A stretch of 64,000 nt of DNA from Paenibacillus sp. FSL H8-0537 (GTDB lineage Bacteria > Bacillota > Bacilli > Paenibacillales > Paenibacillaceae). Numbering within the stretch: the stretch's first letter is position 1; each line of letters begins with the position of its first letter. Shown piece by piece: positions 50,542 through 63,975 of the stretch. The notes under the pieces are model-generated. The model saw nothing but the letters and a program-made list of their open reading frames with translations. It was not told the DNA's origin and did no database searches. The stretch is from positions 1,413,501 through 1,477,500 of the forward strand of contig NZ_CP150290.1 of NCBI RefSeq assembly GCF_038051995.1. Direction: 5' to 3'. Made by a program: the position numbers and the translations under genes.

Positions 50542-51654
50542 TTAAAGCCTGTCAGGTTTGCTTTTCTTTTTGTTATTACTGCGAATCATACCGACAATCC
50601 ACAGCAGCAGCGGCAGTAAAATAAAATGGAAGGGCAAATTAATCGGTACGGCGACGAGCTTAGGATAAAGGATGGAGCTGTCAACAAAGTTGCGTGGCAG
50701 CATCGCGAGTACAAGCGCGACGGGGGCAGCAATAAAGATGAAAATTCGCCAGCGCTTCACTCCGAACCATTGGGCGCTGCCGTAAGAGGCAACGAACAAA
50801 TATAGCGATACTTTAATGAAAATGCCCATAATCCAGATGGCGACGACGATGGCATCAAGATTTTGCAAAAAACCGAAGGAAATGAAGCGAACCAAATTGA
50901 GAAACGGATAGGTCTGCCGAGCAGCTGTTGAGTAGCCAAAGATGGCGATGCACTCCATTGCGGAAAACAACGTAAATACTCCTGCTACTACGGAGCCGAG
51001 CACAGCGCTTTTTGTCCCCTCGCGCGGCTTCGAAAGGAAGGGGAGAATCATCATCAGCATAATGTTATCACCAAGAAAGGAAGCGGTAGGCAGCGCGCCC
51101 TTGAGCAGCACGAGCGGGCTACCATCGACCATAAACGGCAGTAAATTGTTTATTTTTATTTGCGAAATATTCAGCAGAAGCGGCACCATAATGCCAAGCA
51201 GCACTAAAGGGCCAAATACCTCGCTGCACCTTGCAAGCACCTCAATTCCAGCAAAGGAAACATAGGCTGCCACAAGGAGCATGCCAATAATCGGAACTAG
51301 GACGGGCGTGAGCGGCAAAATGGTGCCAATCATGAAATCGGCATACTGCCGTAAAATAATGGCAAGCACCGTATACCAATAAATGAAATACAACAAAATG
51401 ATTGTGTGTCCAAGGAACTTGCCCAATATTTTCGGCGCATAGGTGACTAGAGAATCGCCAGGATACATGATACTGATGCGTGACAGCACATAGGCAAGAC
51501 CCATGGAGAACAGCGTAGAGATGGCAATCGATAACCATGCATCCTGCTTGGCAACCGCAATGGAAGGATTGAGGGTCAGCAATATGGTCATGCCGATCTG
51601 CATCGTGGAAATCATCCAGAAAATTTGATTGCCGTTGATTTTCTCCTTAATCAT
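50542..51654 (-). CDS. Spore germination permease, GerB/GerKB type
   Basis: A 370-aa membrane protein of the endospore germination permease family (APC fold), with about ten TM helices. The start KINGNQIFWMISTMQIGMTILLTL and YPGDSLVTYAPKILGK are typical. It forms the germinant receptor with the A and C subunits upstream and probably contributes the ligand pocket. It is the last gene of the gerA-gerC-gerB order, 15 bp after the lipoprotein gene. Confidence 0.9.
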   Translation of the reverse strand: MIKEKINGNQIFWMISTMQIGMTILLTLNPSIAVAKQDAWLSIAISTLFSMGLAYVLSRISIMYPGDSLVTYAPKILGKFLGHTIILLYFIYWYTVLAIILRQYADFMIGTILPLTPVLVPIIGMLLVAAYVSFAGIEVLARCSEVFGPLVLLGIMVPLLLNISQIKINNLLPFMVDGSPLVLLKGALPTASFLGDNIMLMMILPFLSKPREGTKSAVLGSVVAGVFTLFSAMECIAIFGYSTAARQTYPFLNLVRFISFGFLQNLDAIVVAIWIMGIFIKVSLYLFVASYGSAQWFGVKRWRIFIFIAAPVALVLAMLPRNFVDSSILYPKLVAVPINLPFHFILLPLLLWIVGMIRSNNKKKSKPDRL

Positions 51655-51669
51655 TCGGCTTCCTCCTTC

Positions 51670-52848
51670 CTACTTGGATTCTTGGGTATTGAACATGCCC
51701 GGGCGCAAAATTTCTGCTTTTGCTTTTACAATTACCTTTATTTCTGGGAAAATCGCATCCCAATCCTTTTGATTTTGCTTCCATACACGTGGATAAGCGC
51801 GATGGAATGCTCCTGCAAAGTTGAAAATATCCGCCTTATAGCTATTTTTAGCTTTGGTAACAGCTAGGCTAATGCGCTCCTCAATGTTGCGCTCCAGCTG
51901 ATCCTCGATTTTTTGAAGGCTTTCGCTGCTCTGGGTCAAGTTGATGTCCGATGTATTTTGCAGCAGTTGATTTTTGCAGGAGACGTGAATCGTCATTTCC
52001 CATTGTCCATTATGAAAGCGGGGCTTCATAGAGGAACGGTTCCGCAGCAATTTAACAGAGACAGTCCCGCTAGCGCCCTCTGGCTGGATTGTAACAATCG
52101 CATTGTCCATTTCGTTAATAATCCACAAAATGCCGCGCGTCACCCGGTTGTCGGCAACACCTACCAGCTTGCCATTATGTAGGATGGCAGTCCCATTTAT
52201 GTAGCCGATACTCTGCGTAGGATTTTCTTGATTCGGTGGCGGCAGCGGCACTACCCAAGGCAGCAAGGCGGTTTTGCTATCATCCTCCAGCATTTCGGAT
52301 AAATGAGCCAATGAGGAGGTAATGCTCGTTTTATTGTTGGCCATTTCCCGCAGCACCTCAGATGTATTCCGCTCCAAAATCGAATGATACTCCAAAATCT
52401 TTTTGGCTTTTCCTTTGCTTACGAACACAAAAGCCCGCTCACGAGGCTCTGAATCCCGCATGAGAAAGTCCAAATCCTCCTTCACGCCTTGCTTGACCTT
52501 AGCTTCGCCAAAGATGAATACCTCGGCATGCCCCCAAAAGATTTTACGCGAAAACTTTTGCTGAAGCTGGGACAGCGCGTCGGCAATATTTTCACCATGA
52601 GCCGATTGAACGAAGGTTGTCCCTGTTCCTCCTGATGCTTCGCCGACAGCTTGATCCCCTTGTGTAGAGCCCTGGGGAATAAAGATTTGTACGCTCACCT
52701 CGATGAGCTTATCGTCTTTCTTATCGATGGCTACTCCTGTTACGAGCGCAAGATCATTGATTTCCTTGCGGTCCCAGCAACTGCTCATTATAAGACAAAG
52801 CAATAGGGATAATAGGGAGAGCAGTACGGTACGCATCATCTGGCTCAT
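51670..52848 (-). CDS. Spore germination lipoprotein, Ger(x)C family
   Basis: 392 aa. The signal peptide has lipobox IMSSC, followed by WDRKEINDLALVTGVAIDKKDD, the clear Ger(x)C hallmark. It anchors to the spore inner membrane as the C subunit of the receptor. It overlaps the A-subunit gene by 4 bp (ATGA). GGAGAGG is 7 nt before the ATG. Confidence 0.93.
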   Translation of the reverse strand: MSQMMRTVLLSLLSLLLCLIMSSCWDRKEINDLALVTGVAIDKKDDKLIEVSVQIFIPQGSTQGDQAVGEASGGTGTTFVQSAHGENIADALSQLQQKFSRKIFWGHAEVFIFGEAKVKQGVKEDLDFLMRDSEPRERAFVFVSKGKAKKILEYHSILERNTSEVLREMANNKTSITSSLAHLSEMLEDDSKTALLPWVVPLPPPNQENPTQSIGYINGTAILHNGKLVGVADNRVTRGILWIINEMDNAIVTIQPEGASGTVSVKLLRNRSSMKPRFHNGQWEMTIHVSCKNQLLQNTSDINLTQSSESLQKIEDQLERNIEERISLAVTKAKNSYKADIFNFAGAFHRAYPRVWKQNQKDWDAIFPEIKVIVKAKAEILRPGMFNTQESK

Positions 52849-54362
52849 GAGGAAGCCTCTCCTTCTCCCTGCTCAGGACGGTTGTAAGGGGACTGCCTGA
52901 TTTCGTTTTTACGCCCAGTAAAGCTCGGTCTTTTACGGTTGCTCCATATAGGGGCACGCATGAGCGTATCCAGTATTTCACTCCATTTCATTGGCGCAAG
53001 CGGCTGCAAGTATGGCACTCCAAGCGAGCGGATGGAGCATAAATGGATAATGATGGCGATGACGCCAAGCATTAAGCCGAGCAGGCCAAACATGCCCGCC
53101 AGAAACATAATCGGGAAACGCAATACGCGTATGGCGATGCCAGCGCTGTATTGCGGCAGGAGGAATGACGCGATGCCCGTAATCGCCACGACCATGACCA
53201 TTGGCGAGGAGACGAGTCCGGCAGAGGTCGCCGCTTGCCCGATAACGAGTGCGCCGACGATACTGACGGCGGAGCCTACCTGCTTGGGCAGGCGAACGCC
53301 GGCTTCCCGCAGCGCCTCGAAGGAAACCTCCATCAGCAGCGCCTCAATCAGCGCGGGGAAGGGGATGTCTTCCCGAGACTTGGCAATGCTGAGCAGCAGC
53401 GAAGTCGGCACCATTTCCTGATGGAACGTCAGCACCGCGACATAAAGGGAGGGCAGCAGCAGCGAAATGAAGAGGAACAGAAAGCGCAGCCAGCGGATGA
53501 AGGTGCTGATCATAAAGCGCTGGTAGTAATCCTCTGGCGATTGCAGCATAGACATGAAAGTCGTCGGCGCAATCAGGCAAAAGGGCGTACCCTCTACCAT
53601 GATGCCTATCTTCCCCTCCAGCAGCGAGGCGCTGACCACATCAGGACGTTCGGTTACTTGGATTTGAGGGAAAGGCGAATACGGATGATCCTCAATTAAT
53701 GCTTCGATATAGCCGCTTTCCAATACCCCATCAATGTCGATTTTCTCGATGCGATGTCTGACTTCCTCGACAAGCGAGTGATTAGCAATGCCATCAATAT
53801 GGGCAATGACGACTTCCGTCTTTGTGTAGCGCCCAACCTGCACAGAGCTCAGCTTTAGGGCAGCATCTTTAATTTTGCGCCGCAGCATCGAGGTGTTGAC
53901 ACTCATCGTCTCGGTAAAGCCTTCGCGCGGACCACGAATAATTGATTCTGCTGCTGGTTCCTCGATACCGCGCTGCTGCCAGCCAGATAAATTAATGGCG
54001 ATGCCAAACGGCAGATGATTAACGAGTAGGGCAGCGCTCCCGGTCGAAATATATTGAAGAAGCTCATTAAAGGAGGTGGCGATGGAAAGCTGGCTCGTCG
54101 ATACGACGGAGCGGATATAGGCAAAATCAAGCTCAGACGCTTCGGTTCGGGTTTGCAGAAGCGGAGCAAGAACATGCAGGTCGATGAGCGATTCGTTAAC
54201 CATGCCATCGATAAACAAAAGAAAAGCCTCGGTTTTTCCAGCGATCGGAAAGGTCCGGCTTTTAATATCAACGGAATCATTATAAATCGTGTTGAGAATT
54301 TCGATATTGGCTGCTAGCTCGGTACTGAAAGGCATCAGCCGGTAATCCATTATGTCAACCAT
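52845..54362 (-). CDS. Spore germination receptor subunit A (GerA family)
   Basis: 505 aa. A soluble N-terminal domain (residues 1-260) is followed by about five TM helices and a C-terminal cytoplasmic tail. The GTPFCLIAPTTFMSMLQSPEDYYQRF, SLYVAVLTFHQEMVPTSLLLSIAKSRE and SIVGALVIGQAATSAGLVS blocks are family signatures. ATG 54362 has AAGGAGA at 7 nt; ATG 54368 sits against the ribosome site. It is the first gene of the operon and presumably read by a forespore sigma factor, though no clear SigG promoter was identified. Confidence 0.93.
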   Translation of the reverse strand: MVDIMDYRLMPFSTELAANIEILNTIYNDSVDIKSRTFPIAGKTEAFLLFIDGMVNESLIDLHVLAPLLQTRTEASELDFAYIRSVVSTSQLSIATSFNELLQYISTGSAALLVNHLPFGIAINLSGWQQRGIEEPAAESIIRGPREGFTETMSVNTSMLRRKIKDAALKLSSVQVGRYTKTEVVIAHIDGIANHSLVEEVRHRIEKIDIDGVLESGYIEALIEDHPYSPFPQIQVTERPDVVSASLLEGKIGIMVEGTPFCLIAPTTFMSMLQSPEDYYQRFMISTFIRWLRFLFLFISLLLPSLYVAVLTFHQEMVPTSLLLSIAKSREDIPFPALIEALLMEVSFEALREAGVRLPKQVGSAVSIVGALVIGQAATSAGLVSSPMVMVVAITGIASFLLPQYSAGIAIRVLRFPIMFLAGMFGLLGLMLGVIAIIIHLCSIRSLGVPYLQPLAPMKWSEILDTLMRAPIWSNRKRPSFTGRKNEIRQSPYNRPEQGEGEASS

Positions 54363-54485
54363 CGCCATTCTCCTTGAATAATAAGAGTGGTTAAATCCGA
54401 ATAAGTTAAGGATATATTTACCGACAGCGGCATTTATTATTCTGCTGATTGAATAGGATGGGCAAAAAGGGTCTGCTGGCAGGCA

Positions 54486-57618: not shown

Positions 57619-60600
57619 ATGCAGCAATGGTATAAACGTAAAACAAGTCGCAATAAGCAATTATCTATTCTAATCGTCATGGCGCTTTTGCTCACCTTAT
57701 TGTTACCCGCAGGGGCTATGGGGGCGGAAGCAGCGCCGCAAAGCCTTAAATCTTCCATATTGTCAGAGCAGCTGAAGCTGCCGAAATCAGCTTATGATCA
57801 GGTTGATTCAGCCGGCAAGAAGGAGTCGGCGGGGCTGCTTGGCGCGCAGGGAGAGCAGCGCTTCAAGGTGGAAGCGGCAGGCTCTGCGGCAGAGGGAACA
57901 ACACCACTACTCATTACGCCGCAAAACTACGTACCGCATTCGGACAGCGGCAAGACGATTAGCGTCATCGTTGAGCTGGTATCCGATCCAATCGCCGTGC
58001 AGAGCGTCAAGGCACAGCAAGGTCAGGCCAAGTCGATTGCCGGCTATCAGACGATTGTGAAGCAGGAGCAATCCAGCTTTGCTGCTGCTGCGAGGAAGCT
58101 GAATGTGAAGCTTGGGCGCCAGTACCAGCAAATTTTCAATGGCTATTCGGTACAGGTTCCGGCAAATCAGGTGGACAAGCTGCTTGCGCTGCCTGGCGTG
58201 AAGGCGATCTATCCGAATTCGGAAATCATTATAGATCCGCAGCCAAGCGTAGAGGCTAAAATGGACGAGAGTGTTCCATTTATCGGTACCCCTGTTTATT
58301 GGGACAGCGGCCTAACGGGGGAAGGCATTAAGGTTGGGGTTATCGATAGCGGTATTGACTATCTCCATCCAAGCTTGAAGGATGCTTATAAGGGTGGCTA
58401 TGATTTTGTCGACAATGACAATGATCCGTACGAGACGCTTCCCGATCCGAATGATGCCGAGGTGGCAACCTCCCATGGCACGCATGTGGCTGGTACCGTA
58501 GCAGGGCGCGGAGATCCGGAACACCCGGATGGCGAAAGCGGATGGGTAAAAGGCGTCGCATACGGTGCAGATATTTATGCTTACCGCGTACTGGGGCCGA
58601 AAGGCAGAGGCTCGACGGAAAACGTCATTGCCGCGATGGAACGATCGGTTATCGACGGCATGGATATCATTAACCTTTCGCTGGGAGATGACTTTAATGA
58701 TCAGTTCGAGGCTAGTGCCGTCGCGCTGAATAATGTGATGCTGGCAGGCGTTGTGGCGGTTGCGGCGAACGGAAACGATGGACCGGAGCCTTATACGGTA
58801 GGTGTTCCGGCTACAGCGGAGCTTGCGATTTCCGTCGGAGCTTCTTCGCCGCCACTTTCTGTTCCTGTGCTGACAGGAAGCGGAGTAGACACCGTTTATG
58901 GTGGCTATATGACCTACTCCCCTGAGCTTGGCAATCTGGAAAATAATGCTCTGGAGCTTGTATATACGGGCCTAGGAACAGCGGAGGATTTCATTGGCAA
59001 AGATGTAACGGGTAAAGCTGCGCTCATTTCACGAGGCTCCATTACTTTTGGCGAAAAGGCGCTGAATGCCTTAAATGCCGGAGCTGCGGCTGTCATTATT
59101 TATAACAATGCGACAGGAGGCTTCAGTGGAACGCTGAATGCGGGAGTCGATTATGTCCCTACGCTTAGCATTTCCCAGGAGGATGGACTTGCTTTGAAAG
59201 CGAAGGTTGACGCGGCTGCTGGAGCTGGGGCTGGCGGGTATGCGATCGACTTTGGTACAACAGTAGAGCAGGATATGATGGGTGATTTCAGCTCGCGCGG
59301 ACCATCACTGCCGGGTCTAGCTATTAAGCCGGATATAACGGCGCCAGGTGTAGCCATTCGTTCATCCATACCTGCTTATGGCGGCGATTATTCGGATGCT
59401 TATGAAAATAAGCAAGGCACGAGCATGGCGAGTCCGCATATTGCAGGCGCTGCGGCTCTGCTGCTTCAAAAGGAGAGAGGACTTACTCCATTTGAGGTAA
59501 AAGGGCTGCTGATGAACAATGCGAAGAAGCTGGCAGATCGCAGCGGCGAGCGTTATTCGCATATGGATCAAGGGGCAGGACGGATTGACTTGGAGCAAAT
59601 CTCTCATGCAAAAGCGATAGCGCTCGTGGAGGAAACGACAGTTGCAGTAGCAGGTGCTGCCGCTACGTCTTATTTGACGGGCAGCTTATCTTTCGGAGCA
59701 CAGGCTCCAGGGGATGAGTCGGCGAAAACGATCCAAGTAAAGGATATTTCTGGCGCGGCCAGCTCGTATGCAGTATCGACAATATGGTATGGCGATGCAG
59801 CGGGTGAGCTAAGCGTTAGCGAAGAATCGTTTGCGGTGGCGGCAGGCGGTACGGCTTCCTTCGATGTAGCGCTGCAGGTAGCTGAAGCAGCGGAGGATGG
59901 CCGTTACGAGGGCGAAGTCGTCATTCAAGGTGGAGGACAGACTATACAGCTTCCACTCGCTGTTTATGTAGGCGACGTGGAGCTTCCGGCAAAAGTATCG
60001 GAAATTACGCTTGAACCGTTCCTCTTTTCGCCAAATGGAGATGGTGCAGCGGATACGACCGACCTTAAGTTCCGCGTAAATGCTACGCTGCCGTATTTTT
60101 CACTGGATGTTTATGCGGTTTCGGGAAGCAATTTGTCCTGGAAAGGGGCCATTGTGGAAAGCGCGCAGGGGATGACCCCGGGCAGCTACATCGTTGAAGG
60201 CTGGGACGGGGAAATATTGACGGCTCTTGGCCCTCAGCAGCTTGGTGAAGGACATTATGTCGTCGTGCCTTGGGTGGGGTTTGGGGCAGAAGACTTTTTG
60301 CTTGACCAGCTTGCCGAATTTGTCTTGGATGTGCAGGCTCCGGTTGCGGAACTGGCTGACCCGCCAATTGCGGTTACAGGCAATGACGGTGTGATTAGCG
60401 GACGAATTATTAGTGACCGCCTTATTACGTTGTTCGGCGATTATTCGGCAGTTGGCGCTGCTGCCATCGCTGAGGATGCAAACGGCGATTTGCAGCAGTA
60501 TGATGCGACGATTGCAGCAGACGGGCGCTTCGAGATTTCGGTGCCTATTGTTAAAGGAAGCAACGCTTTTGACGTGTATGTGTATGATGCCGCCGATAAT

Positions 60601-61578
60601 GGCGTCATTGAGCCAGCCTTTGTTGTCAACTATGAGAGTGCGAATGAGCAGCCTGCCACATTGGCAGCTGTTGCTTCAAAGTCCAGTGTGCGCACGGGTG
60701 AAACCTTTGATATTGATGTGAATTTTGAGCATGTAAAGGGCTTATATGCAGCGCAATTCAGCTTGACTTATGACAGCGGGCTCGTGAAAGGCACAGTTGC
60801 GCCAAGTGTTACGCTGTCCACGTATCAGCAGCAGGTCAATCCTGGCGGATCGCTTATCGTAAATGAGACGGTTGTCGATCTCGGGAGCGGCGTTGCGCGG
60901 AGCGACTATGTCGTATCGTTGACCGGGGATCACAGCGGCTATAGCGGCTCCGGGACGCTGGCAACATTCCATTTTTCCAGCGGCAGCACCGGAAAACGAG
61001 ATTTTAAACTGTCCAATGCTCGGGCATTGAACAGCGATACGCAAGAAATTGCTTATAGCAGTGTGAGCGACGTTTCTGTGACGGTGACGCCGGGTCCTAC
61101 CGAGCCGGAGCATCGGATTACAGGCAAAATAACGGCGGAAGCTCTCGGCAGCAGTGTGAATTATAGCGAGACGTGGTACCAAGGTGCCGATGGCGTGCAC
61201 AAAGTTGTCGTAGAGGCGGTTACAGCAAGCAAGGAGGTTGCAGCTGTTGGTGAAGTGAAGGCGGATGGAAGCTATACGCTGCTTGTTCCAGCGGGTACTT
61301 ACACCGTGCGTGTAGTCGTGCCAGGCCATGTGGCTTCGGCGTCTTCGGTGACGGTGGCAGGCGAGGATACGACGCTTAATGTCGGACCGCTTCAGGCGGG
61401 CGATGTGAATAGCGACGGTAAAATCGATCTGGCCGATCTCCAGCTTGTCGCCAAGCAGTTCGGCAAGTCACGGAGTACAAGCTGGGCCAATGCGCCGGCA
61501 AGTGCAGCTGACATTAACCGGGATAACGCGGTTGACCTGCTCGATATTTCCTTCGTTTTAGGCAACTTCAAGCTGTAA
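57619..61578 (+). CDS. Secreted S8 subtilisin-like protease with cohesin-like and dockerin-like domains
   Basis: 1319 aa. The signal peptide ends near AMGAEA, followed by an I9-type propeptide (about 110-205: KTISVIVELV ... LLALPGVKAIYPN). The S8 catalytic domain has D243 (GVIDSGIDYLHP), H286 (SHGTHVAGT), oxyanion N384 and S602 (GTSMASPHIAG), with a PA domain inserted at about 430-530. Fn3-like and other beta domains follow. A cohesin-like domain (about 1013-1157) contains VRTGETFDIDVNFEHVKGLY and AAQFSLTYDSG. A carboxypeptidase-regulatory-like domain comes next. The C-terminal type I dockerin-like pair (about 1261-1319) has DVNSDGKIDLAD and DINRDNAVDLLD. AGGAGGG precedes the ATG. The next gene carries a cohesin-like domain and SLH anchors. 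Confidence 0.92.
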   Translation: MQQWYKRKTSRNKQLSILIVMALLLTLLLPAGAMGAEAAPQSLKSSILSEQLKLPKSAYDQVDSAGKKESAGLLGAQGEQRFKVEAAGSAAEGTTPLLITPQNYVPHSDSGKTISVIVELVSDPIAVQSVKAQQGQAKSIAGYQTIVKQEQSSFAAAARKLNVKLGRQYQQIFNGYSVQVPANQVDKLLALPGVKAIYPNSEIIIDPQPSVEAKMDESVPFIGTPVYWDSGLTGEGIKVGVIDSGIDYLHPSLKDAYKGGYDFVDNDNDPYETLPDPNDAEVATSHGTHVAGTVAGRGDPEHPDGESGWVKGVAYGADIYAYRVLGPKGRGSTENVIAAMERSVIDGMDIINLSLGDDFNDQFEASAVALNNVMLAGVVAVAANGNDGPEPYTVGVPATAELAISVGASSPPLSVPVLTGSGVDTVYGGYMTYSPELGNLENNALELVYTGLGTAEDFIGKDVTGKAALISRGSITFGEKALNALNAGAAAVIIYNNATGGFSGTLNAGVDYVPTLSISQEDGLALKAKVDAAAGAGAGGYAIDFGTTVEQDMMGDFSSRGPSLPGLAIKPDITAPGVAIRSSIPAYGGDYSDAYENKQGTSMASPHIAGAAALLLQKERGLTPFEVKGLLMNNAKKLADRSGERYSHMDQGAGRIDLEQISHAKAIALVEETTVAVAGAAATSYLTGSLSFGAQAPGDESAKTIQVKDISGAASSYAVSTIWYGDAAGELSVSEESFAVAAGGTASFDVALQVAEAAEDGRYEGEVVIQGGGQTIQLPLAVYVGDVELPAKVSEITLEPFLFSPNGDGAADTTDLKFRVNATLPYFSLDVYAVSGSNLSWKGAIVESAQGMTPGSYIVEGWDGEILTALGPQQLGEGHYVVVPWVGFGAEDFLLDQLAEFVLDVQAPVAELADPPIAVTGNDGVISGRIISDRLITLFGDYSAVGAAAIAEDANGDLQQYDATIAADGRFEISVPIVKGSNAFDVYVYDAADNGVIEPAFVVNYESANEQPATLAAVASKSSVRTGETFDIDVNFEHVKGLYAAQFSLTYDSGLVKGTVAPSVTLSTYQQQVNPGGSLIVNETVVDLGSGVARSDYVVSLTGDHSGYSGSGTLATFHFSSGSTGKRDFKLSNARALNSDTQEIAYSSVSDVSVTVTPGPTEPEHRITGKITAEALGSSVNYSETWYQGADGVHKVVVEAVTASKEVAAVGEVKADGSYTLLVPAGTYTVRVVVPGHVASASSVTVAGEDTTLNVGPLQAGDVNSDGKIDLADLQLVAKQFGKSRSTSWANAPASAADINRDNAVDLLDISFVLGNFKL

Positions 61579-61616
61579 GCGGCATGAGACTGATCATAAA
61601 ACGGTCGTGAAAAATG

Positions 61617-61650
61617 GAAGGGGAGCGCGATGGGCTCCCCTCCTTATTTT
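61617..61650 (+). terminator. Weak terminator or intercistronic hairpin
   Basis: GGGGAGC and GCTCCCC arms are followed by TTATTTT, between the protease and the SLH protein genes. The interrupted T run suggests partial readthrough. Confidence 0.55.
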
Positions 61651-61697
61651 CAGGATGAGGCATAGGGAGCAAGAAGTCGAAGACAGGAGAGATGAAT

Positions 61698-62930
61698 ATG
61701 AGAGGGAGTCAGCATTCAAAATGGTTGTCATTAATGGGGGTAAGCCTGCTGGTCACTGCTTGGCTTGGTACGGCAGCGGTATCAGGAGCCGAGAAGGCGG
61801 AAACAGACAAGCTGCCGCAAATTCGTATTGTCCCTTCTGCCAATCAGGTGAAGATTGGCGACGTGTTCGAGGTCGCCGTATGGCTGCAAGGCTTTAAGGG
61901 GAGCTACGGCGGAGTTCAAGGCTATGAGGTACATATGAAATACGATTCAAAGCGAATAGCGCCTGTAGTTGAAAAAGAGGCGGGGGCGCTGCTGCGGCCA
62001 GCGGTGTTTGCAGCTTCGGCGAGTCCCATGCAGCTGCTGAACAAGCTTGATGCCGCAGCAGGCCTTATTCAAATTGCCGAGGCGACGGCCCAGCGGGGCC
62101 CGGCATTATTTTCTGGCTACGGCAAGCTGGGCAGCCTGACCTTCAAGGCAGAGAAGGATGGAGCCGCATCCTTCAGCTTGGCGAAGTCGATCATTATTTT
62201 TCCGGATAATCCGGGACTGAATATTCAGCATCGAGTAAATGAGCCGGTCGTCAGCATTGGCGCAGAAGCAGTCAAGGAAGGCCCGGCGAAGGTCGTCGGA
62301 CAAGCGCCTGCGAAAGCGGCAGCACAGTTGACGGTGGAGCAGCGCCTCAAGCAATTCAAGGACTATGAGGCGGTTGCGAAGCTGAAATGGGCTTCGGCAG
62401 CTGTTGGGGAGCTGGCGCTTGCGCAGGTAATGCAAGGGACGGCAGCTGGCGCCTTTGAGCCGGGGCGCCTAATGACGCGGGCAGAGTTCGCGAAGGCCGC
62501 TGTACTTGCGTTCGAGCTGGATATGAAGCAGCAATCCATCCCCGCTTTTACCGATGTGCGCAATAGCGATTGGTCATACGACTATGTGGAGACAGCGGCG
62601 GCAAATGGCCTGCTGCAAGGTGTAGAGCGGCCGCAAGGCAGTGCCTTTCTGCCGAATCAGCCGATTACGCGGGCGGAAATTGCCGCTGTGCTGTCGCGGC
62701 AGCTCAAGGCGCTCGGCCCGGCCGAGCCAGCAGGTGCACAAGAAGAAGCTGCATCTGGTGTACATCCGTTTAGTGATATTAGCGGCCACTGGGCGGAGCA
62801 GGATATGGCGTATTTGTACGAGCTTGAGCTGCTGCAAGGACGGACGGACAAGCTTTTTGCTCCGGGGGACCATGCAGTGCGTGCGGAAGTCAGCGTGCTG
62901 CTGCACCGCGTAATGGAGCGTCTGAACTGA
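61698..62930 (+). CDS. Surface protein with N-terminal cohesin-like domain and three SLH domains
   Basis: 410 aa. The signal peptide (LSLMGVSLLVTAWLGTAAVSG) is followed by a cohesin-like beta-sandwich (about 40-185: NQVKIGDVFEVAVWLQGFKG, GYEVHMKYDSKRIAPV, LGSLTFKAEKDGAASFSL). Three SLH repeats come next (LMTRAEFAKAAV, ITRAEIAAVLSRQL, VRAEVSVLLHRVM, each preceded by a DVRNSDWSYDY or DISGHWAEQDM type helix). SLH domains bind pyruvylated cell-wall polymer, so the cohesin faces outward on the cell surface. ATG 61698 has CAGGAGA 6 nt upstream. It is 119 bp after the dockerin-bearing protease, hinting at a receptor-ligand pair. Confidence 0.9.
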   Translation: MRGSQHSKWLSLMGVSLLVTAWLGTAAVSGAEKAETDKLPQIRIVPSANQVKIGDVFEVAVWLQGFKGSYGGVQGYEVHMKYDSKRIAPVVEKEAGALLRPAVFAASASPMQLLNKLDAAAGLIQIAEATAQRGPALFSGYGKLGSLTFKAEKDGAASFSLAKSIIIFPDNPGLNIQHRVNEPVVSIGAEAVKEGPAKVVGQAPAKAAAQLTVEQRLKQFKDYEAVAKLKWASAAVGELALAQVMQGTAAGAFEPGRLMTRAEFAKAAVLAFELDMKQQSIPAFTDVRNSDWSYDYVETAAANGLLQGVERPQGSAFLPNQPITRAEIAAVLSRQLKALGPAEPAGAQEEAASGVHPFSDISGHWAEQDMAYLYELELLQGRTDKLFAPGDHAVRAEVSVLLHRVMERLN

Positions 62931-63015: not shown

Positions 63016-63975
63016 CTATACCGGAATCATAAGTAAAATAATCGAAAATAGCGAGAAGCAAACGCTGATGAGAAATAGGAACGACAGCACTTGTCCAGGT
63101 TTGAGGCCGGAATGCAGCAGGCGGTAATGAACCTGTGTCGCATCCGCTTGGTAAATGGGCTTGCCTTGAATCATACGCTTGATTACGACGAAAATGTTAT
63201 CGAAGATCGGCACGCCAAGCGCCAAAATCGGAATGAAAATCGACAGCACAGTCGCCTGCTTGAAGGCACCGTCAAGTGCAATGACCCCAAGCATAAAGCC
63301 GAGGAACGTCGCGCCAGCGTCGCCCATAAATATTTTGGCCGGAGGCTTGTTGTAGCGCAAGTACGCAATTGCAGCCCCAATCAAAATAATAGCCAGCATC
63401 GCGGAATCGCTTTGCCCCTTGGTAAGGGCCACAATAAACAGCGTCACAGCTGAAATTGTAGAAAGGCCGCCCGCCAAGCCGTCCATGCCATCGGAGAAGT
63501 TAATGACGGTCGTTACGCCGAAAATCCATAAAATCGTCAATACGAATTGCAAGGCATAAGGCAGATTGACGAACTCCCCGCTGAGCGGATTGTAGAAGCC
63601 CTCGAATGATACACCAGCGAAAAATACGATTGCCGCCGCCGACACTTGAACGAGCATCTTCGGCAATGACGGAAAATCCTTGCCATGCGTCTTGTACCAA
63701 TCGTCAATCGTGCCAATAATGAGCAGCAAAATCGAGCTTATTATAATAGCGACTGTTTTCATTGTAATTTCATCTACAAATACTAAATACGTAGCCATAA
63801 AGCCGACAAAAATAGCATAGCTCGCCGTGAGTGGAATCGGCTCTTTATGTATTTTGCGTTCGACATCCTTGCGGGGCTTGTCCACAAAATCGATGCGGAA
63901 AGCGAGCTTGCGAAGCGGAGGAATAAGCAGCAGCACAATAAAGAATGACATTGCAAATGCAGCAGCGTAACTAAT
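63016..63975 (-). CDS. Undecaprenyl-phosphate N-acetylhexosamine-1-phosphate transferase (WecA/TagO type)
   Basis: A polytopic enzyme that puts GlcNAc-1-phosphate (or a similar sugar) on undecaprenyl phosphate, the first step of secondary wall polymer or teichoic acid synthesis. Motifs are GTIDDWY (Mg-binding Asp pair), NFSDGMDGLAGG, IFMGDAGATFLGF and ATQVHYRLLHSG. The first ATG (63951) is 33 nt from the only ribosome site and would lose part of helix 1. An in-frame ATT at 63973-63975 has AGGAG at 9 nt, and a stop codon directly precedes it, so ATT is the likely start. SLH anchoring by the neighbouring protein depends on such wall polymers. Confidence 0.85.
   Translation of the reverse strand: MSYAAAFAMSFFIVLLLIPPLRKLAFRIDFVDKPRKDVERKIHKEPIPLTASYAIFVGFMATYLVFVDEITMKTVAIIISSILLLIIGTIDDWYKTHGKDFPSLPKMLVQVSAAAIVFFAGVSFEGFYNPLSGEFVNLPYALQFVLTILWIFGVTTVINFSDGMDGLAGGLSTISAVTLFIVALTKGQSDSAMLAIILIGAAIAYLRYNKPPAKIFMGDAGATFLGFMLGVIALDGAFKQATVLSIFIPILALGVPIFDNIFVVIKRMIQGKPIYQADATQVHYRLLHSGLKPGQVLSFLFLISVCFSLFSIILLMIPV

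What the first reader, a model, noticed from the sequence alone, without database searches (positions are those of the whole stretch)
57619..62930. Possible surface-anchored cohesin-dockerin protease pair
Seen: an S8 protease ends in two dockerin-type Ca-loop segments (DVNSDGKIDLAD and DINRDNAVDLLD, with the D1/N3/D5/D12 ligands in place) and also carries a cohesin-like domain. The adjacent gene encodes a secreted cohesin-like domain followed by three SLH repeats. Known: dockerins bind cohesins, and SLH-cohesin proteins anchor cellulosomes to cell walls. Inference: the protease docks on the SLH protein, giving a minimal cell-bound proteolytic complex, and its own cohesin-like domain could recruit a further dockerin protein. 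Cellulase is not involved, which makes this unlike classical cellulosomes.
Basis: partly seen in the sequence, partly recalled or inferred. Interest (0 to 1): 0.78.

Follow-up and report, generated by a model that had tools for sequence, protein, structure and literature searches.

The report
Protease docked on cell-wall anchor
Two neighbouring genes of a soil-type bacterium encode a secreted protein-cutting enzyme with a docking plug and a cell-wall protein with a socket of the matching kind, one of many such plug-and-socket gene pairs in its relatives, so the enzyme is probably held on the cell surface, although binding has not been measured.

Summary
The S8 protease (57619-61578) carries a PA domain, a cohesin, an X-module-like domain and one two-repeat dockerin. 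The next gene (61692-62930) encodes a divergent cohesin plus three SLH repeats; Pfam misses that cohesin, a genus profile without it finds it at E 2.8e-7.

The pair is not isolated. All 4 dockerin proteins over the Pfam cut-off in this 7.0-Mb Paenibacillus-like genome lie beside a cohesin-SLH gene. Among 40 genomes, 23 have dockerins; there, 60 of 120 dockerin ORFs have a cohesin-SLH gene within 500 nt on the same strand. Dockerins co-vary with the neighbouring anchor's cohesin, not independently with its SLH part. The protease tail and a genus profile of anchor cohesins match the two chains of one solved anchoring complex, 4u3s.

Most likely the protease is held on the wall by its X-dockerin. 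Binding is inferred; structure prediction failed.

The genome's GH48 and CBM3 genes lie away from this system. The idea is not new: S8-cohesin-dockerin scaffoldins, a cell-bound S8 double dockerin and a Paenibacillus cohesin-dockerin set are published. Verdict: new variant of a known kind.

The parts
57619..61578 (+). S8 subtilase with probable signal peptide, I9 propeptide, PA insert, cohesin, X-like module and dockerin (1319 aa)
57985..58224 (+). Inhibitor_I9 propeptide
   Evidence: Pfam 34.0 bits, aa 123-202
58318..59553 (+). Peptidase_S8 catalytic domain with PA insert (58954-59196); D/H/S motifs present
   Evidence: Pfam 203.5 and 64.6 bits; motifs
60676..61086 (+). cis cohesin domain of the protease
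   Evidence: Pfam Cohesin 25.6 bits, cut-off 24.1; profile of 22 cis cohesins hits the NagJ cohesin 2jh2 at 1.2e-15
61111..61392 (+). X-module-like Ig domain just before the dockerin
   Evidence: alignment to X-dockerin chains 4u3s_B, 4wi0_B, 2b59_B; CarboxypepD_reg below cut-off
61396..61557 (+). dockerin, two Ca-loop repeats
   Evidence: Pfam Dockerin_1 38.2 bits, cut-off 22.9; alignment A2
61619..61641 (+). intergenic hairpin with short T-rich tail, seen at the same place in all four species: possible weak terminator or attenuator
   Evidence: terminator-like hits in the scanned region are no more than shuffles give (5 found, 6.4 expected)
61692..62930 (+). probably secreted cohesin-SLH anchor protein (412 aa)
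61857..62180 (+). divergent cohesin domain of the anchor
   Evidence: leave-out profile E 2.8e-7; hhalign 95.3%; no Pfam hit
62373..62888 (+). three SLH repeats, motifs TRAE, TRAE, VRAE
   Evidence: Pfam SLH 103.8 bits, 3 stretches; local profile; motifs

Best explanation
The two genes encode a dedicated enzyme-anchor pair. Both proteins are secreted. The SLH repeats fix the small protein to the cell-wall polymer. Its N-terminal cohesin grips, with calcium, the C-terminal X-dockerin of the S8 protease, so that the protease works tethered to the cell that made it. The protease's own cohesin stays free and may take up a further dockerin protein, possibly another copy or one of the three other dockerin proteins of the cell. 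SHOWN: the modules, their order, the gene pairing across species, and covariation of dockerin and anchor cohesin. INFERRED: secretion, wall attachment, the dockerin-cohesin bond, its calcium dependence, and any chain extension.
For: (1) Modules pass Pfam or leave-out profile tests. (2) In the own genome 4 of 4 dockerin proteins over the Pfam cut-off (a fifth match at E 1.06 is below it) lie beside a cohesin-SLH gene, -31 to 113 nt apart; profile A2 finds the same four. (3) Among 40 genomes, own included, 23 have dockerins; of 120 distinct dockerin ORFs, 60 have a cohesin-SLH gene within 500 nt on the same strand, 28 have another cohesin gene but no cohesin-SLH gene (27 of these have a cohesin-dockerin neighbour, 1 a cohesin-only ORF; 2 of the 28 also have an SLH gene), 6 an SLH gene without detected cohesin, 26 none. 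(4) At E<=1e-15 the protease tail occurs in 4 of 51 genomes of the genus, and at E<=1e-25 the anchor with its cohesin in the same 4 of 51 (2 more match only the SLH part); the two genes are neighbours in three, and in the fourth (G013) one GNAT acetyltransferase gene lies between them. (5) Over 68 pairs dockerin distances follow those of the neighbouring anchor's cohesin (r 0.842; 0 of 300 within-genome reshufflings reach it); given the SLH part of the same anchor gene the partial correlation stays 0.785, while dockerin versus SLH given cohesin is -0.113. Thinning to 46, 32 and 12 loci gives r 0.826, 0.777 and 0.388 (0, 0 and 2 of 2000 permutations reach it). (6) The tail (aa 1202-1317) matches the X-dockerin chain 4u3s_B, and a profile of 24 anchor cohesins matches the cohesin chain 4u3s_A of the same entry, over its first half only. 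(7) A PS_pyruv_trans gene, the family of CsaB (recalled), is present.
Against: No binding shown; AlphaFold models have mean pLDDT 37 and 31. Linked genes share history, so covariation can partly reflect co-inheritance or duplication of whole cassettes. The cis cohesin covaries with the dockerin as well as the anchor's does. A genome of another family (G025) has an S8-cohesin-dockerin protein but no cohesin-SLH gene that profile A1 detects; one of its six dockerin genes does lie 236 nt from an SLH gene in which no cohesin was detected. 26 of 120 dockerin ORFs have no cohesin or SLH gene within 500 nt on the same strand; only one of the 26 (G018) is cut by a contig end, and one is the G013 orthologue of the window protease, separated by the GNAT gene. 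The window's anchor cohesin alone has no PDB hit. The window pair itself is found in only four close species.
Confidence: 0.66

Rival explanations
1. The dockerin binds the cohesin of the protease itself, in the same chain or head-to-tail in a second copy, and the anchor cohesin has another partner.
For: In proteins with both, the dockerin covaries with the cis cohesin at least as much as with the anchor cohesin (partial 0.47 versus 0.35, k 53). G025 has S8-cohesin-dockerin and no detected cohesin-SLH anchor.
Against: 14 of the 21 dockerin ORFs without a detected cis cohesin lie beside a cohesin-SLH gene, so an anchor alone seems to suffice. Cis and trans cohesins of the window share only 22% identity. 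The cis covariation has no linkage control because both domains are in one gene.
Confidence: 0.14
2. Pooled network: any of the dockerin proteins can use any of the cohesin-SLH anchors of the cell, so the adjacent gene is not a dedicated partner.
For: Several anchors coexist in one genome. Strict specificity inside a species was not shown.
Against: Dockerin-anchor covariation among loci of the same genome (partial 0.559 over 133 within-genome comparisons).
Confidence: 0.12
3. The genes are neighbours without contact: the anchor's cohesin-like domain is a spacer or binds a sugar, and the dockerin only stabilises the protease tail.
For: The anchor cohesin is divergent. No structure or binding data. 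A terminator-like hairpin lies between the genes in all four species.
Against: The repeated dockerin plus cohesin-SLH gene pairing with varied cargo leaves these modules as the common element.
Confidence: 0.08

Closest known systems
X-dockerin / type II cohesin anchoring of cellulosomes (solved complexes 4u3s, 4wi0, 2b59)
   Same: X-like module plus dockerin on the cargo, cohesin plus SLH on the anchor; the tail and a genus anchor-cohesin profile match the two chains of 4u3s. Clustering of an anchoring-scaffoldin gene with the scaA gene is known too (PMC6780208, table passage)
   Different: The cargo is a protease itself, not a multi-cohesin scaffoldin; one cohesin in the window's anchor
ScaO/ScaP scaffoldins of Acetivibrio cellulolyticus, C. 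alkalicellulosi and A. mesophilus
   Same: S8 or other peptidase, cohesin and dockerin in one chain (PMC6780208 and PMC3413522 passages, PMC11557425 section 12)
   Different: They belong to full cellulosomes of anaerobes and often carry galactose oxidase or Rhs modules; no adjacent SLH partner is described for them in the parts read
S8 protease double dockerin dDoc_0689 of C. thermocellum
   Same: S8 protease with dockerins that prefers the cohesin of a cell-bound scaffoldin, proposed to anchor the protease on the surface (PMC12484212 section 11, reporting Chen et al. 2024, which I did not see). The dockerin profile also hits PDB 8x39/8x3a 'Serine protease', which I take to be this module (inference)
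   Different: Double dockerin, no own cohesin mentioned; cellulosome host
Paenibacillus guangzhouensis cohesin/dockerin proteins
   Same: 35 cohesin proteins, 28 of them dockerin-cohesin 'monovalent adaptors', in many instances with a GH, and five SLH-anchoring scaffoldins (PMC11557425 section 15)
   Different: One genome, from domain counts; no gene pairing, no covariation and no protease mentioned for it in that section
Clostridium perfringens NagJ cohesin and its dockerin partner (2ozn)
   Same: The cis-cohesin profile hits NagJ (2jh2, 1.2e-15; 2ozn_A, 1.6e-15) and the dockerin profile hits 2jnk/2ozn; FIVAR domains also occur among Paenibacillus dockerin proteins. Non-cellulosomal, organism name recalled
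   Different: Glycoside hydrolases of a pathogen; no SLH anchor (recalled)

Membership tests
Dockerin type I (PF00404) | profile match over the curated cut-off, two Ca-loop repeats | tested here: met
   38.2 versus 22.9 bits; both loops present
Cohesin (PF00963), protease domain | profile match over the cut-off | tested here: met
   25.6 versus 24.1 bits, marginal; profile of cis cohesins hits solved cohesins
Cohesin (PF00963), anchor domain | profile match over the Pfam cut-off | tested here: not met
   no Pfam hit at E up to 1; related to cohesins by leave-out profile, E 2.8e-7, and hhalign
SLH (PF00395) | three SLH repeats with a TRAE-like motif | tested here: met
   103.8 bits, 3 stretches; TRAE, TRAE, VRAE
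Type II X-dockerin/cohesin anchoring pair | X module next to the dockerin and SLH-borne cohesin of the matching type | tested here: inconclusive
   tail versus X-dockerin chains: best E 9.3e-6 and 2.8e-6; genus anchor profile versus 4u3s_A 5.7e-8; nothing for the window anchor alone; no structure
Cellulosome | multi-cohesin scaffoldin carrying a CBM | tested here: not met
   at most two cohesins per ORF in the own genome; none of the 8 CBM3 places lies near a cohesin or dockerin place
Cellulosome | dockerin-bearing cellulases | tested here: not met
   none of the 4 dockerin proteins shows a GH domain in Pfam; the GH48 ORF is elsewhere
Any cohesin-dockerin pair | calcium-dependent high-affinity binding | not testable with these tools
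   needs a binding assay; the complex was not modelled

The most novel reading that the evidence does not exclude
Paenibacillus carries a non-cellulosomal, mix-and-match surface display system: a secreted enzyme, here a protease, is encoded beside its own cohesin-SLH anchor with a co-evolved dockerin-cohesin specificity. Because most cargo proteins carry both a dockerin and a cohesin, they link head-to-tail into enzyme chains that grow outward from one wall-bound anchor, without any scaffoldin.
Probability: 0.3. Interest if true: 0.75.

Novelty: new variant of a known kind. Interest (0 to 1): 0.52.

Why it matters
If the dedicated pairing is right, a common genus that can be grown in air (recalled) has a modular way to hold individual secreted enzymes, proteases included, on its wall without a cellulosome, and adjacent genes hand experimenters tens of ready-made candidate cohesin-dockerin pairs. 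It also makes a clear question testable: is a cohesin-dockerin protein an end cargo or a link of a chain? In this genome the system looks separate from cellulose digestion, because the GH48 and CBM3 places lie far from every dockerin and cohesin place.

Tried and rejected
AlphaFold2 of the cohesin-X-dockerin tail (307 aa) and of the anchor cohesin (184 aa), each with a two-sequence alignment: mean pLDDT 37.2 and 31.4. Too poor for a fold search, so none was run; the complex was not modelled.

Protein-database search for homologues could not be made. The genome-contig search with the anchor confirmed one relative only, Paenibacillus algorifonticola, out of 25 stretches that matched a pattern.

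Considered and rejected: (a) the dockerin loops are chance EF-hand-like motifs - rejected by Pfam score and the invariant pattern over 26 dockerins, although the dockerin profile also hits many calmodulins at lower scores; (b) the anchor domain is not a cohesin - rejected; (c) cis and anchor cohesins of a locus are recent duplicates - not supported: 22% identity in the window pair, and the cis cohesin is closest to its own anchor's cohesin in only 13 of 42 cases against 10.0 expected; (d) the system is part of cellulose degradation in this organism - not supported.

Papers: the search for PDB codes 8X39/8X3A gave only unrelated papers among the 8 of 9 listed; the search for dockerin-like subtilases found none; the FIVAR search gave two papers, on mechanics of polyproteins; the double-dockerin search listed two.

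Rows dropped: 11 of the 132 dockerin matches were below the Pfam cut-off and were not used. The cohesin list was cut by the tool and was not used for counts of places. In the pairing statistics only the best cohesin of an anchor was used. The set for the covariation test (68 pairs, 62 anchors, 23 genomes) allows up to 1100 nt, a wider rule than the 500 nt of the adjacency count, and uses dockerins found by my own profile, not Pfam alone; it includes G041 and G064, which are not among the 40 genomes. The alignments hold hand-picked subsets: 24 of the 62 anchor cohesins, 26 of the 68 dockerins and 22 of the 53 cis cohesins. The Pfam tallies show the first 25 of 81, 55 and 56 families.

Full report
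OBSERVATION. The window lies in a 7.0-Mb single-contig genome, place C1:1413501-1477500. Its genus contains a genome (G041) whose 22,556-base contig has the length of Paenibacillus algorifonticola NZ_LAQO01000062.1 and holds the same locus; from this I infer that the host is Paenibacillus or very close to it. Two ORFs on one strand fit the finding: 57619-61578 and 61692-62930. The first has an I9 propeptide, an S8 catalytic domain with PA insert and D/H/S motifs in place, a cohesin just over the Pfam cut-off and a clear dockerin. The second has three SLH repeats; its N-terminal domain has no Pfam hit but is a cohesin relative by a profile from which it and its orthologues were left out (E 2.8e-7) and by profile-profile comparison with 20 other anchor cohesins (95.3%).

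Between cohesin and dockerin lies an Ig-like domain (about aa 1165-1258; CarboxypepD_reg below cut-off). Together with the dockerin it aligns with chains 4u3s_B (9.3e-6) and 4wi0_B (2.4e-5) and more weakly with 3kcp_A (2e-4) and 2b59_B (1.5e-3) (similar). That these chains are X-module-plus-dockerin dyads, and that 4u3s pairs ScaA with ScaB of Acetivibrio cellulolyticus, is recalled; the calls name them 'cellulosomal scaffoldin' and, for 4u3s_A, 'cellulosomal scaffoldin adaptor protein B'. A profile of 24 anchor cohesins, the window's included, hits 3l8q (6.9e-17) and 4u3s_A (5.7e-8, over positions 3-53 of 121). So the window's tail and its anchor's family resemble the two sides of one solved anchoring complex. 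The window anchor by itself, as a four-species profile, finds nothing, so the type assignment leans on its relatives. The cis cohesin belongs to another branch: its profile hits the NagJ cohesin best (2jh2, 1.2e-15).

NOT AN ISOLATED PAIR. The own genome has four dockerin proteins over cut-off; a fifth match (E 1.06) is below it. All four neighbour a cohesin-SLH gene: the window pair (113 nt); a dockerin protein with weak propeller and Ig hits next to a double-cohesin SLH protein (104 nt); a CBM4_9-cohesin-dockerin protein next to a cohesin-SLH protein (1 nt); a dockerin-Big_5 protein overlapping a cohesin-SLH gene by 31 nt. By a rough estimate of my own, five such anchor genes in 7 Mb would lie beside a given gene well under 1% of the time. 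One further cohesin-SLH protein carries an enzyme, a phosphoesterase, in the same chain.

GENUS-WIDE. Of 40 genomes (own included), 23 have Dockerin_1 and 27 have Cohesin. I used the 121 of 132 dockerin matches that pass the cut-off and fetched the DNA around them. They make 120 distinct ORFs. On the same strand within 500 nt, 60 have a cohesin-SLH gene; 28 have no cohesin-SLH gene but another cohesin gene (27 of them a cohesin-dockerin one; 2 of the 28 also an SLH gene); 6 have an SLH gene without detected cohesin; 26 have none of these. 99 of 120 carry a cohesin of their own. The spacer from cohesin to dockerin is 20-39 aa in 60 of 113 ORFs and 80-139 aa in 48 of 113 (window 122 aa), the longer class fitting an X-like module. 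Cargo domains in the listed tallies include GH43, GH2, GH3, GH20, GH98, GH127, GDSL esterase, amidase, a sialidase N-terminal domain and phosphoesterase. S8 is rare: five ORFs in the fetched regions match it, four being this locus and one in G025, a genome of another family (its S8, PA, I9 and dockerin are confirmed by Pfam).

THE WINDOW PAIR IN RELATIVES. The protease tail is found in 4 of 51 genus genomes (E<=1e-15) and the anchor with its cohesin in the same 4 (E<=1e-25); two others match only the SLH part. In G013 a 212-aa GNAT acetyltransferase gene lies between the two, yet both are kept. A hairpin just after the protease stop is present in all four: perhaps a weak terminator or attenuator, though such patterns are no commoner in the region than in shuffles. 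A shared mRNA is therefore not certain.

COVARIATION. For 68 dockerin/anchor pairs (62 anchors, 23 genomes), pairwise distances of dockerins and anchor cohesins correlate at 0.842; shuffling partners within genomes gives 0.436 (sd 0.064; 0 of 300 reach it). The SLH part of the same anchor gene serves as linkage control: dockerin versus cohesin given SLH 0.785, dockerin versus SLH given cohesin -0.113; within genomes only, 0.559 and -0.217. Thinned sets of 46, 32 and 12 loci give 0.826, 0.777 and 0.388. Limits: faster-evolving domains may track each other better than the slower SLH part; broad dockerin classes visible in the alignment probably drive part of the signal; and the cis cohesin covaries at least equally (partials 0.47 cis, 0.35 trans at k 53). 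The result supports an interaction with the anchor but does not single it out.

AGAINST. G025 has six dockerin proteins, one of them S8-cohesin-dockerin. The anchor-cohesin profile finds two cohesins there and Pfam one more that is listed (a second Pfam match is in the unlisted part); the three that I could place all lie in dockerin proteins. One of its dockerin genes lies 236 nt from an SLH gene without detected cohesin. Either its anchor is undetected or such proteins can work without one. Structure prediction failed for want of a deep alignment.

SURFACE AND SUBSTRATE. The genome has one PS_pyruv_trans gene, the family of CsaB, which makes the usual SLH ligand (recalled); the family also occurs in 8 of the 14 control genomes, so this is only a consistency check. 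Both window proteins begin with a basic, then hydrophobic stretch; no signal-peptide program was run. The protease's substrate is unknown; its best solved relative is 8jmw, an S8 family peptidase. The genome also holds GH48 and eight CBM3 places, none near a cohesin or dockerin place: a cellulase set that does not seem to use this docking system.

KNOWN WORK. PMC11557425 (abstract, sections 12 and 15 and passages read) reports 35 cohesin proteins in P. guangzhouensis, 28 of them dockerin-cohesin adaptors, with five SLH anchors, and an S8-bearing scaffoldin in A. mesophilus. PMC6780208 and PMC3413522 (passages) describe ScaO/ScaP with peptidases; a table passage of the former also notes an SLH-anchoring scaffoldin gene clustered with scaA, so gene proximity of anchor and client is known in cellulosomes. 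PMC12484212 (section 11 and passages) reviews an S8 double dockerin that prefers a cell-bound scaffoldin. PMC6823336 (passages) describes a Paenibacillus complex whose S1 protein lacks cohesin and dockerin. PMC5817068 (passages) places cellulosomes in Lachnospiraceae and Clostridiaceae only. Two searches of the held library, Paenibacillus with cohesin and dockerin (46 papers, 40 listed) and with SLH added (9 papers), showed me no report of genus-wide gene-paired dockerin/anchor loci or of this protease; most listed papers were seen only as titles and abstract openings.

VERDICT. A real, well-defined cohesin-dockerin gene pair, very probably a wall-tethered protease; one case of a genus-wide arrangement of which one genome has been described. 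New variant of a known kind; the chain model is the boldest reading left open.

Noticed in passing
L024:7711-11120; L017:7176-12199; L021:7570-12406 (own genome): Three further dockerin plus cohesin-SLH gene pairs in the same genome, with cargo that shows no GH domain in Pfam.
   Followed up: yes
L020:5611-9411 (own genome, minus strand): A metallophosphoesterase-cohesin-SLH protein: enzyme, cohesin and wall anchor in one chain.
   Followed up: no
L018:400-6965 (own genome): A rhamnogalacturonan lyase (RGL11) ending in a cohesin without dockerin, downstream of a PAP2 phosphatase-SLH protein without cohesin.
   Followed up: partly
L023:7736-9133 (own genome, minus strand): A cohesin protein whose end looks by eye like a decayed single dockerin repeat (GDVGSVEKVDLLEVVDAVL); Pfam gives no dockerin there.
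   Followed up: no
L053-L057 and L137 (G003:C11, about 77-124 kb): A run of ten cohesin-dockerin genes, nine of them within 38 kb, downstream of one cohesin-SLH gene: a good place to test chain assembly.
   Followed up: partly
L063:6810-8084 (G010): A 425-aa ORF read as cohesin-dockerin-cohesin-dockerin, beside a cohesin-SLH gene: a possible chain extender.
   Followed up: no
L103:2736-6683 (G025): An S8-cohesin-dockerin protein in another family of the order, with no cohesin-SLH gene detected in that genome.
   Followed up: partly
L044:5541-6179 (G013, minus strand): A GNAT acetyltransferase gene between protease and anchor genes; both are otherwise kept.
   Followed up: yes
own genome C1:1003-1006 kb: GH48 and CBM3 genes side by side, far from any dockerin or cohesin place.
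   Followed up: partly
window 50542-54368, minus strand: Three spore-germination receptor genes: Spore_permease, GerAC and GerA families.
   Followed up: partly
window 63016-63951, minus strand: A glycosyl transferase family 4 gene, converging on the anchor gene; such enzymes start wall polymers (recalled), but no link to SLH anchoring was tested.
   Followed up: no
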